Positions 2,884-41,739 of a DNA stretch of 64,000 nt are shown here, piece by piece. A model generated the notes under the pieces. That model saw only the letters and a program-made list of their open reading frames with translations, did not search any database and was not told the origin of the DNA. The stretch lies in assembly GCF_036924745.1 (NCBI RefSeq), contig NZ_JAZHSD010000001.1:3720001-3784000 (forward strand), in the 5' to 3' direction. This DNA comes from Bradyrhizobium sp. AZCC 1693 (GTDB lineage: Bacteria > Pseudomonadota > Alphaproteobacteria > Rhizobiales > Xanthobacteraceae). Made by a program: the position numbers and the translations under genes. Each line of letters opens with the position of its first letter. The first letter of the stretch is position 1.

Positions 2884-3291
2884 TTACGAACGCGGCCGCG
2901 CCTCGTCGTTGCGGCGCCTTTCATACAGCATCCGTTCGGCCTCGCGAATCACGTCGAGCGGCGCCCACGGCTTGGACCAGAACTGCACGCCATCGGGCAA
3001 TTCCTGATGCAGCGGTTTGCCCGAGGTGACGATCACTCCCATGTCGGGATTGTACTTCCGGGCGATGTGCGCGAGCTCAACGCCGTCCATGTTGCCGGCG
3101 AGCTGCACGTCGGTCATCATCAGGACCAGACTGCCGGCCGCGCGCTCCAGCACCAGCTCGGCGGCCTCCGCACTCTCGCATTCGATGACATCGACCTCGC
3201 TCTCTTCCAGCAGCAGGCAAATCATGTCCCGTTGCATCGGATCGTCTTCGACAATGAGGGCCGTCGCGCGATGGGGTTTTGATTGTCCCAT
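2884..3291 (-). CDS. single-domain response regulator (CheY-like receiver)
   Basis: The 135-residue product is just one receiver domain: acidic pair D16/D17 (VEDDP), phospho-acceptor D61 (MMTDVQLAG), T90/S91 and K108 (WSKPW). It has no output domain, so it probably passes phosphate to or competes with partners in a two-component pathway. The start at 3291 is chosen because GAGGAGG sits 6 bases upstream; the frame is open for another 31 codons, which lack domain character. No sensor kinase is adjacent, so its partner is encoded elsewhere. It is divergent from the SDR gene and the two promoters share about 150 bases. Confidence 0.88.
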   Translation of the reverse strand: MGQSKPHRATALIVEDDPMQRDMICLLLEESEVDVIECESAEAAELVLERAAGSLVLMMTDVQLAGNMDGVELAHIARKYNPDMGVIVTSGKPLHQELPDGVQFWSKPWAPLDVIREAERMLYERRRNDEARPRS

Positions 3292-3439
3292 ATGAGCCTC
3301 CTCTGGATTCGCGCCGGTTTGGCGATGCCCCTTCTGTCGGGTAGTCGACGTTAAGGCCCGAAGCGCTTTATTGTTCAGTTCCAATTTGCGAAAGTTGCGG
3401 AACCCCGCCTTCCTTCTCGACCTGCATGGAGTTCACCCA

Positions 3440-4285
3440 ATGACTGCGATATCCGGAAGTGCGGCCGCCGTGACCGGCGCTGCCAGCGGCATCGGCCGCG
3501 CGCTGGCGCTGGAACTGGCCGCGCGCGGCTGCGATCTCGCGCTGGCCGACCGCGACGAGGCTGGGCTGCAGCAAGTGGCCGCCGAGATCGGCAAGGCGGG
3601 CGCGCGCCAGATATCGACCCACCGCGTCGATGTCGGCCAGCCCGCCCAGATCCAGGCATTCGCGCACGCGGCCATTGCCGCCCACCCCCGGCTCAACATC
3701 GTCATCAACAATGCCGGTGTTGCGCTGCTCGGCGCCTTCAACGAGGTCGACCAGGCGCAGATGGAGTGGCTGATCAACATCAATTTCTGGGGCGTGGTGC
3801 ACGGCACCCGCGCGTTCCTGCCGCATCTTTCGACGCAGCGCGAGGCGCATATCGTCAACCTCTCCTCGATCTTCGGCATTCTCGCCCCGCCCGGCCAGAC
3901 CGCGTATGCGGCGGCAAAATTCGCGGTGCGCGGCTTTTCAGAAAGCCTGCGGCATGAGCTGGCGATGGCGAAAAGTCCGGTGAAACTCTCGGTGGTGCAT
4001 CCCGGCGGGGTATTGACCAACATCGTGCGCAACTCCCGCACCGGCAGCGGTATCGCCGACAATGCGCGCCGCGCCGAATCCATCGACCGCTTCGATGCAA
4101 TCGCCAAGACCACGCCGCCGATTGCAGCCCGGCGCATCATCACCGGCATCGAGAAAAACCAGCCGCGGATTCTGATCGGCAACGACGCGTGGTTCATGGA
4201 TCTGTTGCAACGATTTCGTCCGGCGACGTATTGGGCGGTGCTGGCGAAGCGGATCGGGAGGACGGCGGAGCGGGAGGGGAAGTGA
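3440..4285 (+). CDS. short-chain dehydrogenase/reductase (SDR)
   Basis: The 281-residue cytoplasmic oxidoreductase has the classical SDR features: cofactor motif TGAASGIG (12-19), NNAG (90-93), catalytic S142/S143, Y156 and K160 (YAAAK). An acidic/basic pair after the second strand (ADRDE) suggests NAD rather than NADP preference, an inference. The start at 3440 has GGAG about 10 bases upstream; the upstream extension to 3371 is not domain-like. The substrate is unknown. A repeat element begins right after the stop. Confidence 0.88.
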   Translation: MTAISGSAAAVTGAASGIGRALALELAARGCDLALADRDEAGLQQVAAEIGKAGARQISTHRVDVGQPAQIQAFAHAAIAAHPRLNIVINNAGVALLGAFNEVDQAQMEWLININFWGVVHGTRAFLPHLSTQREAHIVNLSSIFGILAPPGQTAYAAAKFAVRGFSESLRHELAMAKSPVKLSVVHPGGVLTNIVRNSRTGSGIADNARRAESIDRFDAIAKTTPPIAARRIITGIEKNQPRILIGNDAWFMDLLQRFRPATYWAVLAKRIGRTAEREGK

Positions 4286-4311
4286 GTTCGGCATGCGGAT
4301 GGTGCCCCTTC

Positions 4312-4446
4312 GCAGGATGGGTGGAGCGAATCGATACCCATCAATGCCGACGTGTGCGGCGATGGGTTTCGCTGTAGCGTGCCCACCATCACGAGCGAAC
4401 GTGAAATGGTGGGCACGGCGCTGGCGCGCCTTTGCCTACCCTACCA
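4312..4446. repeat. interspersed repeat (GGATGGGTGGAGCGAA / GGTGGGCACGGCGC type)
   Basis: About 135 bases between the SDR gene and the lytic transglycosylase contain inverted pairs: ATACCCATC against GATGGGT, and GTGCCCACCAT against ATGGTGGGCAC. I recall this type as a common dispersed repeat in Bradyrhizobium-like genomes. It has no coding potential. Confidence 0.55.
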
Positions 4447-4467
4447 AGTTACGAAGCGACGAGGCTC

Positions 4468-5274
4468 TTATCGCCCGACCAGCCTGTCGGCAAAATACCC
4501 GATCGTCTTGCGGTAGATCGTGGCCCTGTTCCACTCGCGCATCGCTTCGAAATTCGCGGTGCCCTCGCCGTAGGGCGCGCCGCCCTTGAAGCCGCTCGTG
4601 TGCAGCAAGTTCGCGGTGGAGGCGAGCACGTCGGGGACGCTGTGACGCAAATCGACGTGGCCGTTGCCGTCGAAGTCGACGCCGTACTTGATGTAGGACG
4701 ACGGCAAGAATTGCGTCTGGCCGATTTCGCCGGCGTAGGCGCCGATCAAATCGCGCAAGGGCAGATCGCCGCGCTGCACGATCTTCAGCGCCGCCAGCAG
4801 TTCGCCCTGGAACAGTTCGGTGCGGCGGCAATCATGCGCCATGGTGGCGAGCGTGCGGATGACCGGCATTTTTCCGATATCACCCTTGCCGAAATCCGAC
4901 TCCAGCCCCCAGATCGCGACCACGATCTCGGGCGGCACGCCAAACTTCTGCTCGATGCGCGCCAGCAGCGAGCCATGCCGCTGCAGCATCTGCCGCCCGA
5001 TGTTGATGCGCCCGGGGCCGACGCGGGTGGAGACATACTGCTCGAACGATTTGTTGAAAGTGCCGCGCTGGCGGCGGTCGAAGGTCAGCACCGCCGGATC
5101 CTGCGTGATGCCGGCAAAGGCCTGACTGATCACGGCCTGCGAGACGCCGGCCGCTGCCGCCTCCTGCGACATCGCGGAAACGAAGGTGTTGAAATCGCCG
5201 CCGCAGCGGGCGGCGTAGGTCGGGGTGGAGCAGATGACGGCACTGAGGAAAATGGCCCAACGAATGATGCGCAT
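4468..5274 (-). CDS. lytic murein transglycosylase, MltB-like (SLT_2 domain)
   Basis: A 268-residue exported protein with a signal peptide (residues 1-21, cut after TYA) and no lipobox. It cleaves the MurNAc-GlcNAc bond of peptidoglycan, forming anhydro-MurNAc. The catalytic glutamate is E125 in GLESDFG, and the MltB landmarks AHDCRRTE, GEIGQTQFLPSSY and DFDGNGHVDL follow. It has only the catalytic domain without a C-terminal peptidoglycan-binding domain. A paralog in the same orientation lies at 5475-6266, with a palindromic repeat between them, so the pair probably arose by duplication. Confidence 0.92.
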   Translation of the reverse strand: MRIIRWAIFLSAVICSTPTYAARCGGDFNTFVSAMSQEAAAAGVSQAVISQAFAGITQDPAVLTFDRRQRGTFNKSFEQYVSTRVGPGRINIGRQMLQRHGSLLARIEQKFGVPPEIVVAIWGLESDFGKGDIGKMPVIRTLATMAHDCRRTELFQGELLAALKIVQRGDLPLRDLIGAYAGEIGQTQFLPSSYIKYGVDFDGNGHVDLRHSVPDVLASTANLLHTSGFKGGAPYGEGTANFEAMREWNRATIYRKTIGYFADRLVGR

Positions 5275-5474: not shown

Positions 5475-6266
5475 TCACTCCCCGCCGTCGATCTGGCGGC
5501 CCATCAGCGCGATGGCTTTCTGATAGACACCCGCGGCATTCCAGGCCTGGATGGCAGCAAAATTCGGCTCGCCCGGCTGGTAGCCTGCGCCCGCGCGCCA
5601 GCCATGGGCCTTCAAGAAGTTCGCGGTCGAGGAGAGCGCATTGGCGGCGTTTTCGAGATTGCCGGTGCCGTAGGCCAAAATGGCTTTGGGCATGAACTGG
5701 GTCTGGCCGACTTCGCCATGCATGGAGCCGCGCTGGGCTGGCGAGAGCGCGCCGCGATCGATCAATTGCAGCGCCGCGTAAAGATGCTCGGTGAAATATT
5801 CCGAACGCCGGCAGTCATAGGCCAGCGTCGCGATCGAGGCGAGCATGTTCTGGTTGCCGCGCTGGCTGCCGAACCCGGTCTCCATGCCCCAGATCGCAAG
5901 CAGCGGCCCCGGCGGCACGCCGTAGCGGCTCTGAATGGAGGCAAACAGCGCGCCCTGCGACTGCTTCAACTGCCGCCCTCTCGAGACGATGGTCGTAGCT
6001 CCCCGCTTGGCGAGAAACTGATCGAGCGAGAGATTGAAACTGCGCTGGCCGCGGTCGGCATTGATGGTCGCCTGCGCGTAGTTCGTCGCCATCAGCGCCT
6101 GGATGGTCGAGGCGCTGATGCCCTTGGCTTGCGCCTCGCGAGCGAATTCCTGCTTCCAGGCAGCAAAGCCGGCGGACGAGCTGCCGCATTGGGCGGCGCG
6201 GGCCTGCGAGTTGAAGCATGCGAACATTGCCAGAGTGGCGCTGAAAGCAAATGCGAGGCGGAGCAT
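5475..6266 (-). CDS. lytic murein transglycosylase, MltB-like (paralog)
   Basis: The 263-residue paralog of the 4468 gene has a signal peptide (cut near QARA) and the same SLT_2 fold: catalytic E129 in GMETGFG, AYDCRRSE, GEVGQTQFMP. It lacks the DFDGNG segment of its neighbour, which is shortened to GTGNLE, so substrate contacts may differ. The start at 6266 is chosen for its signal peptide and the AAGGAATGG upstream; the frame runs 13 codons further back. Role: periplasmic peptidoglycan remodelling. Confidence 0.9.
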   Translation of the reverse strand: MLRLAFAFSATLAMFACFNSQARAAQCGSSSAGFAAWKQEFAREAQAKGISASTIQALMATNYAQATINADRGQRSFNLSLDQFLAKRGATTIVSRGRQLKQSQGALFASIQSRYGVPPGPLLAIWGMETGFGSQRGNQNMLASIATLAYDCRRSEYFTEHLYAALQLIDRGALSPAQRGSMHGEVGQTQFMPKAILAYGTGNLENAANALSSTANFLKAHGWRAGAGYQPGEPNFAAIQAWNAAGVYQKAIALMGRQIDGGE

Positions 6267-6486
6267 GGAAAAGCCATTCCTTAAGAGAGCACTGCAAATA
6301 AGCATCGGCTTCTAGCACGTCCTTGGCCGCGCTTCGAGCGGTTGCGGCAAACGCACGGGCAAAATCTCCCCGAAAACGGCCATGATTGCGACTAATTTGA
6401 ACCGGGTGGTGTTCTGCCGCGACCCTTACGAGTCGTATTTCGTCCCGCCCTTCCCCTCGATCGTTTCTCGAACCAATGGATTTCCC

Positions 6487-7431
6487 ATGGGCTTACCGCG
6501 CATACTGTTCAGGCCGATCCTCCTGCTGCTCGCCTTGTCGCTTGGCGCGATGACGAACGCTTCCGCGCAGACGCGCGACGTGGCCGGCGCAAAAGATTAT
6601 CCCGGCATCGGCCGGTTCGGCGGCAGCGTCATCACGGGCTATCAGGTGAAGGATTTTGACGCGGCGCGGATACAAGGAGCCGCCTTCAAGGACGGCCAGC
6701 CCACCGACGCGCGGCGGCTGGAAGGCCGCATCACCCGCATCGCCTATCGCACCAATCCCGGCCCCTCGATCCTGGAAGTGTCGCGCAATTTCGAGACGCA
6801 ACTGGCAAAGGCCGGCTTCGAAACGCTGCTTGCCTGCGACACCGAGGCCTGCGGCGGCATTCCCTTCTCGGAAGCGATCGACGCGCTGCCGATCCCGCAG
6901 ATGTGGGTGGACGGCTTCAACTATCGCTATTTTGCGGGGCGCAAGACCGATGGCGGGCGCGAGACCTATGCCAGCCTCATCGTCAGCGAGAACAACCGCG
7001 ACATCTATGCGCAGCTCGTGATCGCCGAACTCGGCGCCATCCAGAACAAGATGGTGGATGCGGCGGCAATGGCAAAGGGCCTCGGCGAAGCCGGCCACAT
7101 CGCACTCTACGGCATCTATTTCGACACCGACAAGGCGGTGGTCAAACCCGAAAGCCGCCCGACGCTCGAACAGATCGCAAAACTGCTGACGGGCCAGCCG
7201 CAGCTCAACGTCTTCATCGTCGGCCACACCGACAACCAGGGCGCTTACGACTACAATCTCGATTTGTCGCGGCGGCGGGCTGAGGCGGTGGCGGCGGAAC
7301 TTGTGAAGAACTTTCGTATTGTGCAGGCGCGGCTGAAGACCGCCGGCGTAGGATTTCTGGCGCCGGTCGGCTCCAATGCCAACGAGGGCGGCCGCGCGCT
7401 GAACCGGCGGGTGGAGTTGGTGGCGCCGTAG
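6487..7431 (+). CDS. OmpA-family outer-membrane/peptidoglycan-associated protein
   Basis: A 314-residue exported protein. The signal peptide ends at NASAQ, a mixed alpha/beta middle region follows, and the C-terminal 100 residues form an OmpA/MotB peptidoglycan-binding domain with IYFDTDKAVVKPES, FIVGHTDNQG and DLSRRRAEAV. The domain binds diaminopimelate in the wall. The middle domain, with a Cys pair (ACDTEACGG), I do not recognise. The start at 6487 is chosen because the hydrophobic leader begins there; 35 in-frame upstream codons look non-coding. The TAG at 7429-7431 is followed by the low-GC island. Confidence 0.88.
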   Translation: MGLPRILFRPILLLLALSLGAMTNASAQTRDVAGAKDYPGIGRFGGSVITGYQVKDFDAARIQGAAFKDGQPTDARRLEGRITRIAYRTNPGPSILEVSRNFETQLAKAGFETLLACDTEACGGIPFSEAIDALPIPQMWVDGFNYRYFAGRKTDGGRETYASLIVSENNRDIYAQLVIAELGAIQNKMVDAAAMAKGLGEAGHIALYGIYFDTDKAVVKPESRPTLEQIAKLLTGQPQLNVFIVGHTDNQGAYDYNLDLSRRRAEAVAAELVKNFRIVQARLKTAGVGFLAPVGSNANEGGRALNRRVELVAP

Positions 7432-7680
7432 GGCCCGCGGGAACTCGAGCCAGGCGCGCAGCAGGAACGAACTTTCAGCCAACCGCGGAAGTCTCGTAGA
7501 ATGGGCCGCGCCAGCGAGAGGCGAGCTCTCGCGCCGGGGACCGCGTTGGAGCATTGCCTGTTCCGCATTCAATCTGCCCCGCTGATCAGGAATAAAATCA
7601 TGTTAACCTAAGGATGTTTCTTCATCTGATAGGATACTTTTTGAATAGCAACTGTTCTTGTTTTGTTCTAAGGTGGCTTT
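7432..7680. other. left boundary of the low-GC island, promoter region
   Basis: Sequence composition changes here from GC-rich to AT-rich at about 7580. The AT-rich tract 7585-7680 directly precedes the three-Cys-motif gene and should contain its promoter. I do not find an integrase, tRNA or clear direct repeat that would mark an attachment site. Confidence 0.4.
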
Positions 7681-8457
7681 ATGGCATCCTCGACGCAAAT
7701 CGAATGGACTGACGCAACCTGGAATCCTGTCACGGGTTGCACAAAGATCACTCGTGGCTGCGACTTTTGCTATGCGGAGCGTTTTTCAGAACGCTTTCGA
7801 GGAGTCCCTGGCCATCCGTTTGAAAATGGTTTCGACCTAAGACTACGACCGGAGCGGCTAACCCAACCGCTAAGCTGGCGACAGCCGCGCCGTATCTTCG
7901 TCAACTCTATGAGCGACCTCTTTCACAAAAACATACCTAGACCCTTCATTGATTCGATATTCGACACAATGGAGGCTGCTGACTGGCATACGTTTCAGGT
8001 TCTAACCAAGCGCAGTTCGCTTATGGTCCGATATCTTCGCGATCGATACGGCATAGGCAAAGCACCCTCGCATATTTGGTTGGGGGTATCCGTCGAAGAC
8101 GCGAAAAATGCAGTTCGATTGAAGCATCTCCTCGCTGCACAGGCATCCGTCAAATTTGTCTCCTTCGAGCCTCTGCTAGGTTCTGTAGGCAAGATCGATC
8201 TCAAGGGAATCGACTGGGCCATTGTGGGCGGGGAGAGCGGCCCGAGTGCACGTCCTATGGCAGAAGAATGGGCGATAGAAATTCGAGATCACTGCCGTTC
8301 GGCCAAAGTCGCGTTCTTCTTTAAACAATGGGGCGGCGTTCGGCCTAAGTCCGGCGGTCGACTTCTTAGGGGCCGCGAGTGGAACGACTATCCTCGTGTG
8401 TCTTGCCTTAAACCTGTGGTTTCTTCCTTGCCACCAGTTGATTTTAACGCGAATTAG
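7681..8457 (+). CDS. phage Gp37/Gp68-family three-Cys-motif protein (radical-SAM-like)
   Basis: The 258-residue protein opens with EWTDATWNPVTGC and a C-x6-C-x2-C cluster (C20, C27, C30 in GCTKITRGCDFCYAERF), which resembles an iron-sulfur-ligating radical-SAM motif. Further family landmarks are FVNSMSDLFH, FQVLTKR, WLGVSVE, SFEPLLG and VGGESGPSARPM. This matches the Pfam Gp37/Gp68 family, seen in phages and in bacterial islands beside TcmP. The reaction is not known; a radical-SAM-type chemistry on nucleic acid is inference. It leads a three-gene operon (45-base gap to tcmP). A 60-base line counted by hand (7921-7980) is 40% GC against 62% for a counted line in carB, pointing to horizontal transfer. 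Confidence 0.85.
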   Translation: MASSTQIEWTDATWNPVTGCTKITRGCDFCYAERFSERFRGVPGHPFENGFDLRLRPERLTQPLSWRQPRRIFVNSMSDLFHKNIPRPFIDSIFDTMEAADWHTFQVLTKRSSLMVRYLRDRYGIGKAPSHIWLGVSVEDAKNAVRLKHLLAAQASVKFVSFEPLLGSVGKIDLKGIDWAIVGGESGPSARPMAEEWAIEIRDHCRSAKVAFFFKQWGGVRPKSGGRLLRGREWNDYPRVSCLKPVVSSLPPVDFNAN

Positions 8458-8502
8458 GTCTGGACTTGGCAGGATCAGACAAAATCCATTAGGCAGCTTC
8501 GG

Positions 8503-9606
8503 ATGCAGCCAAGAACGACAATTTGGGAACTTGAGCCGCATACCGCGGCAAAGCATGAGATTCTCCGTCGATATATTCAGGCTTGGGCACCAATCCTAAG
8601 CCAAGGAAATTTTCCTCATCTCGTTTTTGTTGATGGATTCGCTGGGCCAGGCCGCTATTCGGAAGGCGAGGAAGGCTCACCTGTCATCGCGGCAAAGGCC
8701 GTAATCAATCAGCTCCGCCCAATCAAAGCCAAGGTCGATTTCCATTTCATCGAACTCGATGAGAAACGGTCCGATCACCTCGCTACCGAGATTGGGTTAC
8801 TAACATTCCCGTCAAATGTCTCGGCCAAGATCCACGGCGGCCGTGCCTTTCAAGACACGTTCCCTGAGGTTTGGGACAGCTATGCATCCAGGCCAGGTCG
8901 TTCGCGACCACCGACATTCGTGTTCATCGACCCGTTTGGATTTAAGATACCCTTTTCGAATGTAGTGAAAGTGCTAAGCGCACCAAGCTGCGAGGTGTTG
9001 ATCACCTTCATGTTCGAGGAGATCAACCGATTCCTGTCACAAGGCCAACAGCCCGACAATTTTGATGATCTCTTTGGCTGCCGCGACTGGCGGGAAGGAA
9101 TTGACATAAAGCTACCGAGAGAGCGCGTGAAATTCCTTCACGACCTCTATCAGAGGCAACTTACGCAAGCCGCCGGGGCCCGCTTCGTACGCTCTTTCGC
9201 AATGCGCAATGAGCGCAATACAATGGACTATTTTCTCTTCTTTGCGACGAATAACGAACTTGGATTGAAGAAAATAAAAGAGGCTATGTGGCGAGTTGAC
9301 GAAAGCGGAACATACACATTTTCTGACGCAACAGACCCAAACCAATCTGTGCTCTTTTCAGCAGAGCCTAACCGTGAATTGCTCAAACGACTCATCGTGG
9401 GCAAGTTTGAAGGAACTGAGGTAACAGCCAGCGAGATAGAGCGTTTCGTGGTTCATGAGACACCGTTTCGGGAGACCCATTACAAGAAAGTGCTTCAAAC
9501 TCTGGAGGGAGCCGAGAGACTAATCCCAATTGATCCCCCAGCAAACCGGCGACGCGGAACTTATGCCGATATAAATATGAAATTGCGCTTCGAGCCCAAG
9601 ACATGA
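8503..9606 (+). CDS. tcmP: three-Cys-motif partner protein TcmP
   Basis: A 367-residue protein that fits the TcmP family, which is defined by its co-occurrence with three-Cys-motif Gp37/Gp68 proteins. The N-terminal WELEPHTAAKHEILRRY is typical. I read a methyltransferase-like Rossmann pattern: motif I FVDGFAGPG (42-50), an acidic strand FIELDE (82-87) and FIDPFGF (141-147) at the place of the DPPY-type motif IV. SAM binding is therefore an inference, not established. The C-terminal third looks like a winged-helix module. It shares the low GC of the island; the next gene starts 3 bases after its stop. Confidence 0.85.
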   Translation: MQPRTTIWELEPHTAAKHEILRRYIQAWAPILSQGNFPHLVFVDGFAGPGRYSEGEEGSPVIAAKAVINQLRPIKAKVDFHFIELDEKRSDHLATEIGLLTFPSNVSAKIHGGRAFQDTFPEVWDSYASRPGRSRPPTFVFIDPFGFKIPFSNVVKVLSAPSCEVLITFMFEEINRFLSQGQQPDNFDDLFGCRDWREGIDIKLPRERVKFLHDLYQRQLTQAAGARFVRSFAMRNERNTMDYFLFFATNNELGLKKIKEAMWRVDESGTYTFSDATDPNQSVLFSAEPNRELLKRLIVGKFEGTEVTASEIERFVVHETPFRETHYKKVLQTLEGAERLIPIDPPANRRRGTYADINMKLRFEPKT

Positions 9607-9609
9607 ATT

Positions 9610-10197
9610 GTGAAAGACATGCTGGCCATAGATTTTGAGCAGCAGGAGGGAATCACCGTTCCTTACCCTCCGCTATTCGATGGCGTCCGCAACAACTATG
9701 GCTTCGTAGACCTCCGAGGACGGCCCGATCTCGCCGCTAGAATTTCTGAGGGATGTGCCTCAGATGCATTAAAGAACCTTCTTGTTAGGTTGTCTGAGCG
9801 CGGCTCCCCATTTTTCACGGTTGGCTGCGATCTTGGTTCACACGAAGAGCCAGACGGTGATAAGAACGCTCGATACGTTGCGGGCGGATATGTTCAATTA
9901 ATGCACTGTCGTTATGCGGACCGATCGCCAGAAGACTATTATTCATTCGGCGAGGTAATAGCGAAAGAGTTGGGCGAATTATCCCAAGATCACAGTTGGC
10001 TTCTGCGTTTCGTTCTAACGTTTGTGGCCTTTAACCTCGACGATTTCTCGAGCCTCACTCCCTCAGTTTGGATGTGGTTTTATGCAAAGGGGCACAATCC
10101 AGAAGCAGCCGTGGCATCCCGCGAAATATTGATTTCTGAATTTCGTGAGACTCTGGCGAGCAAACAGCTAAACCTTCTTCTCGAAGAATGGTGCTAA
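9610..10197 (+). CDS. unknown protein, third gene of the TcmP island
   Basis: The 195-residue product starts at GTG 9610, 3 bases after the tcmP stop; ATG at 9619 is the alternative. I recognise no family. It is acidic, soluble, with no signal peptide or transmembrane segment. The first half has FTVGCDLGSHEEPDG, and the middle RFVLTFVAFNLDDFSSLTPSVWMWF is hydrophobic and probably buried. Close spacing implies co-translation with tcmP, so it may be an accessory, substrate-recognition or immunity-like part of the same system. Codon use is AT-rich like its two upstream neighbours. Confidence 0.75.
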   Translation: MKDMLAIDFEQQEGITVPYPPLFDGVRNNYGFVDLRGRPDLAARISEGCASDALKNLLVRLSERGSPFFTVGCDLGSHEEPDGDKNARYVAGGYVQLMHCRYADRSPEDYYSFGEVIAKELGELSQDHSWLLRFVLTFVAFNLDDFSSLTPSVWMWFYAKGHNPEAAVASREILISEFRETLASKQLNLLLEEWC

Positions 10198-10349
10198 GGG
10201 AAAATCTCGAACAAATGAAAACGGCGAATTCTCGCCCGCTGCCTTGTTTCTAAGGAACCCAAGTCTATCCCGGTCATGACGATCTGAATCAACTATCCAA
10301 GAACGACTGCAACCTTCTGCTCCGGCTGCCGCTTTGGCTGCCAAGGACA

Positions 10350-41663: not shown

Positions 41664-41739
41664 GGCCCGGTGGCGGAAGCGACAACGCGGGAGCAGTGCA
41701 ATGCTCCTTATCCTGGTTCAAATCCAGGCCGGGCCTCCA
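41664..41739 (+). tRNA. tRNA-Cys(GCA)-like gene with aberrant anticodon arm
   Basis: The 76-base sequence has a perfect 7-bp acceptor stem GGCCCGG/CCGGGCC, encoded discriminator U73 and CCA, a 3-bp D stem GCG/CGC, and a 5-bp T stem CCTGG/CCAGG with the normal loop TTCAAAT. The acceptor and T arm match what I remember of rhizobial tRNA-Cys. But the anticodon stem GGAGC/GCTCC encloses an 8-base loop AGTGCAAT instead of 7, and the D loop GAAGCGACAA lacks the GG pair. Reading U-GCA-A gives a Cys anticodon. It may be a divergent tRNA, a frameshift-suppressor type, or a decaying copy. Confidence 0.6.

What the first reader, a model, noticed from the sequence alone, without database searches (positions are those of the whole stretch)
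7585..10200. Low-GC three-gene island: three-Cys-motif protein, TcmP and an unknown third protein
Seen: three co-directional genes with gaps of 45 and 3 bases, AT-rich composition (two hand-counted 60-base lines are 40% GC, against 62% in a carB line), sitting between two ordinary exported-protein genes with no integrase. Known: Gp37/Gp68 proteins with a CxxxxxxCxxC motif recur beside TcmP proteins, and no reaction is assigned to the pair as far as I know. Inference: the Cys cluster looks radical-SAM-like, while TcmP shows FVDGFAGPG, FIELDE and FIDPFGF in the order of motifs I, II and IV of class I methyltransferases. Together this suggests a nucleic-acid or small-molecule modification system, possibly anti-phage. 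The third gene (9610-10197) has no family I can name and may be an undescribed component.
Basis: partly seen in the sequence, partly recalled or inferred. Interest (0 to 1): 0.78.

Follow-up and report, generated by a model that had tools for sequence, protein, structure and literature searches.

The report
Three-gene mobile candidate phage-defence module
A small stretch of foreign DNA in a bacterial chromosome carries a known but untested candidate phage-defence gene pair plus a third, undescribed gene that is found with it elsewhere, and in relatives one half of the pair stays nearly constant while the other half is swapped for very different versions.

Summary
Three co-directional, AT-rich genes (7681-10197) lie between an OmpA-family gene and a glycoside-hydrolase-like gene. 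Four same-genus genomes have only 21-23 bp there.

Genes 1 and 2 are DUF5131 (Gp37/Gp68) and TcmP. PADLOC already lists the pair as the unvalidated phage-defence candidate PDC-M30. The TcmP model has a class I methyltransferase fold; Pfam finds a C-terminal winged helix. DUF5131 resembles "radical SAM mobile pair protein A", but its Cys motif is CX6CX2C and no general radical-SAM profile matched.

Gene 3 (best start 9619) has no named family and a confident, unmatched alpha/beta model. It is rare, yet DUF5131 lies within 1.2 kb in 5 of 5 independent loci with a close relative, and TcmP in 4 of 5, in different gene orders. Two more distant relatives lack both. Gene 3 is therefore probably a real accessory component.

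An unasked result bears on mechanism. In seven Gordonia phages DUF5131 is 92-97% identical in 21 of 21 pairs, but TcmP only 23-29% in 18 of 21: TcmP is replaced wholesale.

I read this as a mobile-element exclusion or defence module: constant SAM-chemistry core, exchangeable recognition subunit, occasional third protein. Function is untested.

The parts
7681..8457 (+). DUF5131 (Gp37/Gp68) gene, 258 aa; C20-x6-C27-x2-C30, GGESG and KQWG motifs
   Evidence: PF07505 E 2.2e-94; PADLOC PDC-M41B/M30B; TIGR04471 E 1.4e-19, far under its cut-off; the three Cys, GGESG and KQWG invariant in the 18-row alignment
8503..9606 (+). tcmP, 367 aa: methyltransferase-fold domain (about 12-265) plus C-terminal winged helix (273-345)
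   Evidence: TIGR04474 E 8.6e-58 and PF22560 GMT-wHTH E 7.6e-8; PADLOC PDC-M30A; model pLDDT 82 with class I methyltransferase matches
9619..10197 (+). gene 3, 192 aa from ATG 9619 (195 aa from GTG 9610): undescribed accessory protein
   Evidence: 187 relatives, none of the 120 listed with a Pfam domain; 0 families in Pfam, NCBIfam, PADLOC; weak phrog_18578; model pLDDT 93.1; within 1.2 kb of DUF5131 in 5 of 5 close-relative loci
7432..10328 (.). segment absent from the corresponding place in four same-genus genomes (21-23 bp there)
7432..7527 (.). left part of that segment, homologous to sequence lying beyond the GH gene in G160; probably older local DNA, not cargo

Best explanation
A horizontally acquired, mobile-element-type exclusion or defence module. 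DUF5131 is the conserved core enzyme, probably doing radical-SAM-like iron-sulfur/SAM chemistry. TcmP is a methyltransferase-fold protein with a winged helix that most likely binds the target, probably nucleic acid, and sets specificity; it is the part exchanged between otherwise near-identical modules. Gene 3 is an optional third subunit or regulator of the same module. Shown: gene linkage, the methyltransferase fold model, insertion at a place that is empty in relatives, partner exchange. Inferred: the chemistry, nucleic acid as target, anti-phage role, role of gene 3.
Against: No functional data. General Radical_SAM profile not listed for 18 members, Cys spacing not canonical, DUF5131 not folded here. 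No defence gene among 10 window neighbours scanned. Phages themselves carry DUF5131 (161 of 50,697 records), which fits phage self-interest as well as host defence. DUF5131 also occurs with no annotated tcmP within about 2.5 kb. Two more distant gene 3 relatives have neither partner. Gene 3 is broken in two of the five close-relative loci.
Confidence: 0.5

Rival explanations
1. Nucleic-acid modification carried by mobile elements for their own benefit: TcmP and DUF5131 install a modified base in DNA or tRNA that protects the element's genome or tunes translation, with no attack on other phages. Gene 3 is a substrate or cofactor protein.
For: The pair or its parts occur on phages, a viral contig and plasmids; a winged helix; RNA methyltransferases among the tied fold matches.
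Against: Wholesale exchange of TcmP against a constant DUF5131 is not expected of a simple self-marking enzyme, though it does not exclude one.
Confidence: 0.25
2. Toxin-antitoxin-like or abortive module: one component damages a host target when the balance is disturbed, and gene 3 or TcmP restrains it.
For: Compact operon; rare third gene; gene 3 carries a stop in L039/L078 and is cut short in L060.
Against: TcmP has an enzyme fold and DUF5131 resembles an enzyme family, neither a known toxin (inference); the pair also exists without gene 3 (for example L063, L079).
Confidence: 0.12
3. Gene 3 is a chance neighbour and the locus is only the known DUF5131-TcmP pair.
For: Gene 3 is far rarer than TcmP (187 against 3956 relatives in single-sequence searches); more distant relatives stand without the pair.
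Against: DUF5131 lies within 1.2 kb in 5 of 5 close-relative loci with different TcmP lineages and gene orders; 6 shared contig lengths between the listed gene 3 and TcmP hits against a mean of 1.4, maximum 4, in 120 shifted comparisons.
Confidence: 0.1

Closest known systems
PADLOC phage-defence candidate PDC-M30 (and PDC-M41)
   Same: Both components found side by side: TcmP hits PDC-M30A (E 9e-62); DUF5131 hits PDC-M41B (1e-101) and PDC-M30B (9e-101).
   Different: No PADLOC model matched gene 3 of the window (0 families). The candidate is itself unproven.
NCBIfam TIGR04474 three-Cys-motif partner protein TcmP with Pfam PF07505
   Same: Same gene pair, above curated cut-offs.
   Different: A third linked gene and partner exchange: I saw no mention of either in the papers searched (listings and passages only).
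Radical SAM mobile pair protein A (NCBIfam TIGR04471)
   Same: All 18 DUF5131 members scanned match it; by its name it too is half of a mobile gene pair.
   Different: Window protein scores 70 bits against a cut-off of 355; its partner here is a methyltransferase-fold protein.
Type I restriction-modification with exchangeable HsdS (analogy, recalled, no call)
   Same: Constant core with an exchanged partner.
   Different: No sequence kinship tested, no nuclease seen here; only the pattern is alike.

Membership tests
PADLOC PDC-M30 | component A (TcmP type) | tested here: met
   PDLC04567 E 9.2e-62
PADLOC PDC-M30 | component B (DUF5131 type), adjacent | tested here: met
   PDLC04569 E 8.7e-101; genes 45 bases apart. 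PDC-M41B scores slightly higher for this component
PADLOC PDC-M30 | anti-phage activity | not testable with these tools
   candidate only; no assay seen in the listings and passages
TcmP (TIGR04474) | score over curated cut-off | tested here: met
   196 bits against 53
Class I SAM methyltransferase | fold | tested here: met
Class I SAM methyltransferase | motif I and acidic motif IV residue | tested here: met
   D44, G48 and D143 invariant in 16 divergent members; the motif names are recalled
Class I SAM methyltransferase | SAM binding and methyl transfer | not testable with these tools
   needs an assay
Radical SAM superfamily (DUF5131) | canonical CX3CX2C motif (recalled) | tested here: not met
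   CX6CX2C in the window, longer loop in L060; three Cys invariant in 18. Not filed as a member
Radical SAM superfamily (DUF5131) | match to the general Pfam radical SAM family | tested here: not met
   not among families listed at E up to 5 for 18 members; the filters drop most matches above about 0.1
Radical SAM superfamily (DUF5131) | similarity to a curated radical SAM family | tested here: met
   TIGR04471 by 18 of 18 at E up to 1, best 2e-25; window protein E 1.4e-19 but under that family's own cut-off
Radical SAM superfamily (DUF5131) | TIM-barrel fold with iron-sulfur cluster | not tested
TYW3-like proteins (gene 3) | fold similarity | tested here: inconclusive

The most novel reading that the evidence does not exclude
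DUF5131-TcmP is a polymorphic immune or exclusion system of a new kind: a constant iron-sulfur/SAM enzyme aimed by interchangeable methyltransferase-fold recognition proteins, with gene 3 as a third subunit widening or controlling it. The prediction is that which phages or nucleic acids are affected depends on the TcmP present.
Probability: 0.3. Interest if true: 0.82.

Novelty: new variant of a known kind. Interest (0 to 1): 0.55.

Why it matters
The pair is widespread (DUF5131 over the cut-off in 107 of 265 same-genus genomes; TcmP in 96 of 72,556 plasmid records), yet I found no reaction or target in the papers searched. Constant-core, swapped-partner geometry gives a direct test: closely alike Gordonia phage loci already supply natural swaps. 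Gene 3 adds an undescribed component with a confident model and strongly conserved residues (R36, G92-G93-Y94, W130 in 105 of 105 aligned members).

Tried and rejected

Gene 3 by sequence: no PDB match at E up to 1 or, as a profile, up to 10. Over 105 members, Pfam and PADLOC gave only scattered weak matches, best E 0.01 and 0.004, at most 5 members each; phrog_18578 was matched by 100 of 105 at E up to 0.1, best 9e-10, function unknown. Further hunts for gene 3 loci: three more viral-contig scans with P0118, P0120 and P0113 found none; plasmid searches with P0265 and P0118 found the same single record; P0120 found no phage record. A distant relative from L062 found 3 phage records (Pasteurella, Mannheimia), whose surroundings I did not look at.

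Rapid drift instead of exchange of TcmP: rejected for the Gordonia phages, because Easley and Bosnia align at 87 and 89% DNA identity on the two sides of tcmP and not across it, and the TcmPs have different best matches elsewhere (Easley and Angelique types to the window's, Jablanski to L026's, PantheRoc to L035's).

Site-specific insertion: no direct repeat at the two ends found. A copy of the OmpA 3' end beyond the GH gene in G160 shows the site is rearranged, but the history was not resolved.

Literature: searches in the held library showed no study of DUF5131 or TcmP function. I saw listings, and passages of PMC12429752, PMC12445080, PMC10855318, PMC11878078, PMC12988326 and PMC7824862; PMC7387457, which mentions the motif once, was not opened. 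Subscription papers and preprints are mostly not held.

Rows dropped: 34 DUF5131 loci were used after leaving out four duplicates; 5 of the 34 had no TcmP ORF of 200 aa or more (some loci are short) and were left out, so pairs come from 29 loci. L038 was not among them, its DUF5131 piece being under 200 aa. The loci are the 30 returned plus L001, L037, L039 and L060, not a random sample. Pairs are not independent: I see at least three separate exchanges. Across all pairs the two identities still correlate (Spearman 0.47). In one search I used 7 Gordonia phages; one search counts 49 Gordonia records with DUF5131. Six of the seven were chosen because TcmP was also detected (8 distinct phages; WelcomeAyanna and Pytheas were not used). 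Two further phages looked at (TChen, Cashline) have no annotated tcmP within about 2.5 kb. In one search only the 120 listed hits of each search were used, less the window's own entry and entries with no contig length.

Full report
OBSERVATION. Third-position GC is 0.50-0.53 against 0.73-0.82 for three neighbours. The genome is a single 7.6 Mb contig with one DUF5131 match.

EMPTY SITE. The region was sought in 41 genomes, 24 of them other genomes of the same genus. In four of these (G192, G160, G065, G062) the OmpA-family gene is followed after 21-23 bp by sequence matching window 10329 or 10337 onward. The window has about 2.9 kb there. The first 96 bases of that segment (7432-7527) have a 79% identical counterpart in G160 that lies, together with the OmpA 3' end, beyond the GH gene. 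The site is therefore rearranged and the cargo probably starts further right. In two other genomes (L063 = G014, L079 = G233) a related pair lies a few kb away in the same neighbourhood, between a DCC1-like gene and rpoD (those two named by eye from their likeness to window genes). Its DUF5131 is 85-90% identical to the window's but its TcmP only 29-30%, and no gene 3 match was found there.

GENES 1 AND 2. DUF5131: PF07505 at E 2e-94. TcmP: TIGR04474 at E 9e-58, and the winged helix PF22560 at E 8e-8. PADLOC assigns them to PDC-M30/M41. PMC10855318 (passages seen) calls PDC systems putative and not experimentally validated, found by guilt-by-embedding. It reports PDC-M30 in 32 strains of a 100-strain P. 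aeruginosa panel, 68.8% of them resistant; this is a correlation among strains carrying many systems. PMC11878078 (passage seen) lists two PDC-M30 in PA14. A DUF5131-TcmP fusion of 634 aa exists (P0223), so the two proteins very likely work together.

DUF5131: the three Cys, GGESG and KQWG are invariant in 18 members. All 18 match TIGR04471, radical SAM mobile pair protein A, at E up to 1, best 2e-25. The general Pfam radical SAM family did not appear; 9 of 18 matched PF17338 (gene product 88, best 2e-5), of unknown bearing. No PDB sequence matched convincingly, and no model was made. Radical-SAM-like chemistry is likely by kinship to a curated family, but formal membership is not shown.

GENE 3. 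No family in Pfam, NCBIfam or PADLOC for the window protein, and a weak phage family of unknown function (phrog_18578, E 3e-4). 187 relatives among 5.8 billion proteins, 544 with a profile and a capped candidate set. It is rare in genomes: 4 of 265 in the genus, 1 of 397 in an order sample, 2 of 385 in a class sample with either of two queries, each count including the window's own genome. The window protein finds 1 of 72,556 plasmid records and 0 of 50,697 phage records. The model is confident (pLDDT 93.1, pTM 0.89) and has no convincing solved relative. R36, G92, G93, Y94 and W130 are identical in 105 of 105 aligned members.

LINKAGE. Loci that I located with a gene 3 relative and examined: the window; L060 (G220: DUF5131, TcmP, gene 3, the last cut short beside what look by eye like insertion-sequence genes); L037 (Methylobacterium plasmid carrying RecA, ribonucleotide reductase and dUTPase genes: DUF5131, gene 3, then TcmP on the other strand); L039, whose DUF5131 and TcmP are identical to those of L078 in genome G697 (viral contig: DUF5131, gene 3 with one stop, TcmP); L038 (Mesorhizobium: a short DUF5131 piece beside gene 3, no TcmP found); and L061 and L062, more distant (29-41% over part of the protein), with neither partner. 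So DUF5131 lies within 1.2 kb in 5 of 5 close-relative loci and 5 of 7 in all; TcmP in 4 of 5 and 4 of 7. The TcmPs of L060, L037 and L039 pass the TIGR04474 cut-off, yet the four linked TcmPs are very different (42% at best, otherwise about 24% or no match at E 1e-4). Gene 3 thus follows the module, not one TcmP lineage. An indirect check agrees: the listed hits of the two protein searches share 6 contig lengths, against a mean of 1.4 and a maximum of 4 in 120 shifted comparisons.

PARTNER EXCHANGE. In 29 loci with both genes, 45 locus pairs have DUF5131 at 80% or more, and in 20 of these TcmP is under 40%. Seven Gordonia phages make this sharper: DUF5131 92-97% in 21 of 21 pairs; TcmP 23-29% in 18, and 97, 88 and 51% in the other three. 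Six of these seven TcmPs were scanned and all six pass the TIGR04474 cut-off (ThankyouJordi, 97% like Easley, was not scanned). Easley and Bosnia match at 87% DNA identity up to the end of DUF5131 and at 89% again from just beyond tcmP, through the repressor (88% identical), with no match across tcmP at E 1e-5. That is replacement of one gene between alike flanks. In the seven stretches, 6 show an annotated integrase, 6 an annotated immunity repressor, and most a metalloprotease or peptidase gene, as expected for genes of a lysogeny region.

READING. The most economical account is a module whose DUF5131 part is a constant enzyme and whose TcmP part sets what is recognised, under selection to change. 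Such exchange is typical of conflict systems (general knowledge). Gene 3 is an optional third part. Whether the target is phage nucleic acid, host RNA or something else is open, and no experiment was seen in the searches made. Confidence by step: TcmP methyltransferase fold about 0.95; gene 3 belongs to the module 0.85; DUF5131 radical-SAM-like 0.75; TcmP as specificity part 0.5; anti-phage or anti-element role 0.45.

Noticed in passing
L082-L088 (Gordonia phages): tcmP alone is replaced by very different versions beside a conserved DUF5131 and, in Easley/Bosnia, between it and a conserved immunity repressor.
   Followed up: yes
L063 (G014) 3006-4922 and L079 (G233) 5809-7735: A DUF5131-TcmP pair with 85-90% identical DUF5131 sits between a DCC1-like gene and rpoD, a few kb from where the window's copy lies: the rpoD neighbourhood seems to receive such modules more than once.
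   Followed up: partly
L065 (G160) 3117-3307: A second copy of the OmpA-gene 3' end plus its downstream sequence lies beyond the GH79-like gene, suggesting that the GH gene was itself inserted after the OmpA gene with duplication of its end; in G161 (L073) the OmpA match is followed after about 75 bp by the gene that lies beyond the GH gene in the window.
   Followed up: partly
P0223: Natural 634-aa fusion of DUF5131 and TcmP.
   Followed up: yes
PMC12445080 Table 1 (passages seen): In Sinorhizobium meliloti TcmP (SMa2243) is listed next to the Hna defence gene (SMa2245), both raised about twofold in the nolR+ strain.
   Followed up: no
L062 8941-9555, L061 11356-12072: More distant gene 3 relatives without DUF5131 or TcmP, so the wider family has other contexts.
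   Followed up: partly
window 41664-41739: ARAGORN reports a tRNA-like hit with an incomplete anticodon call.
   Followed up: no
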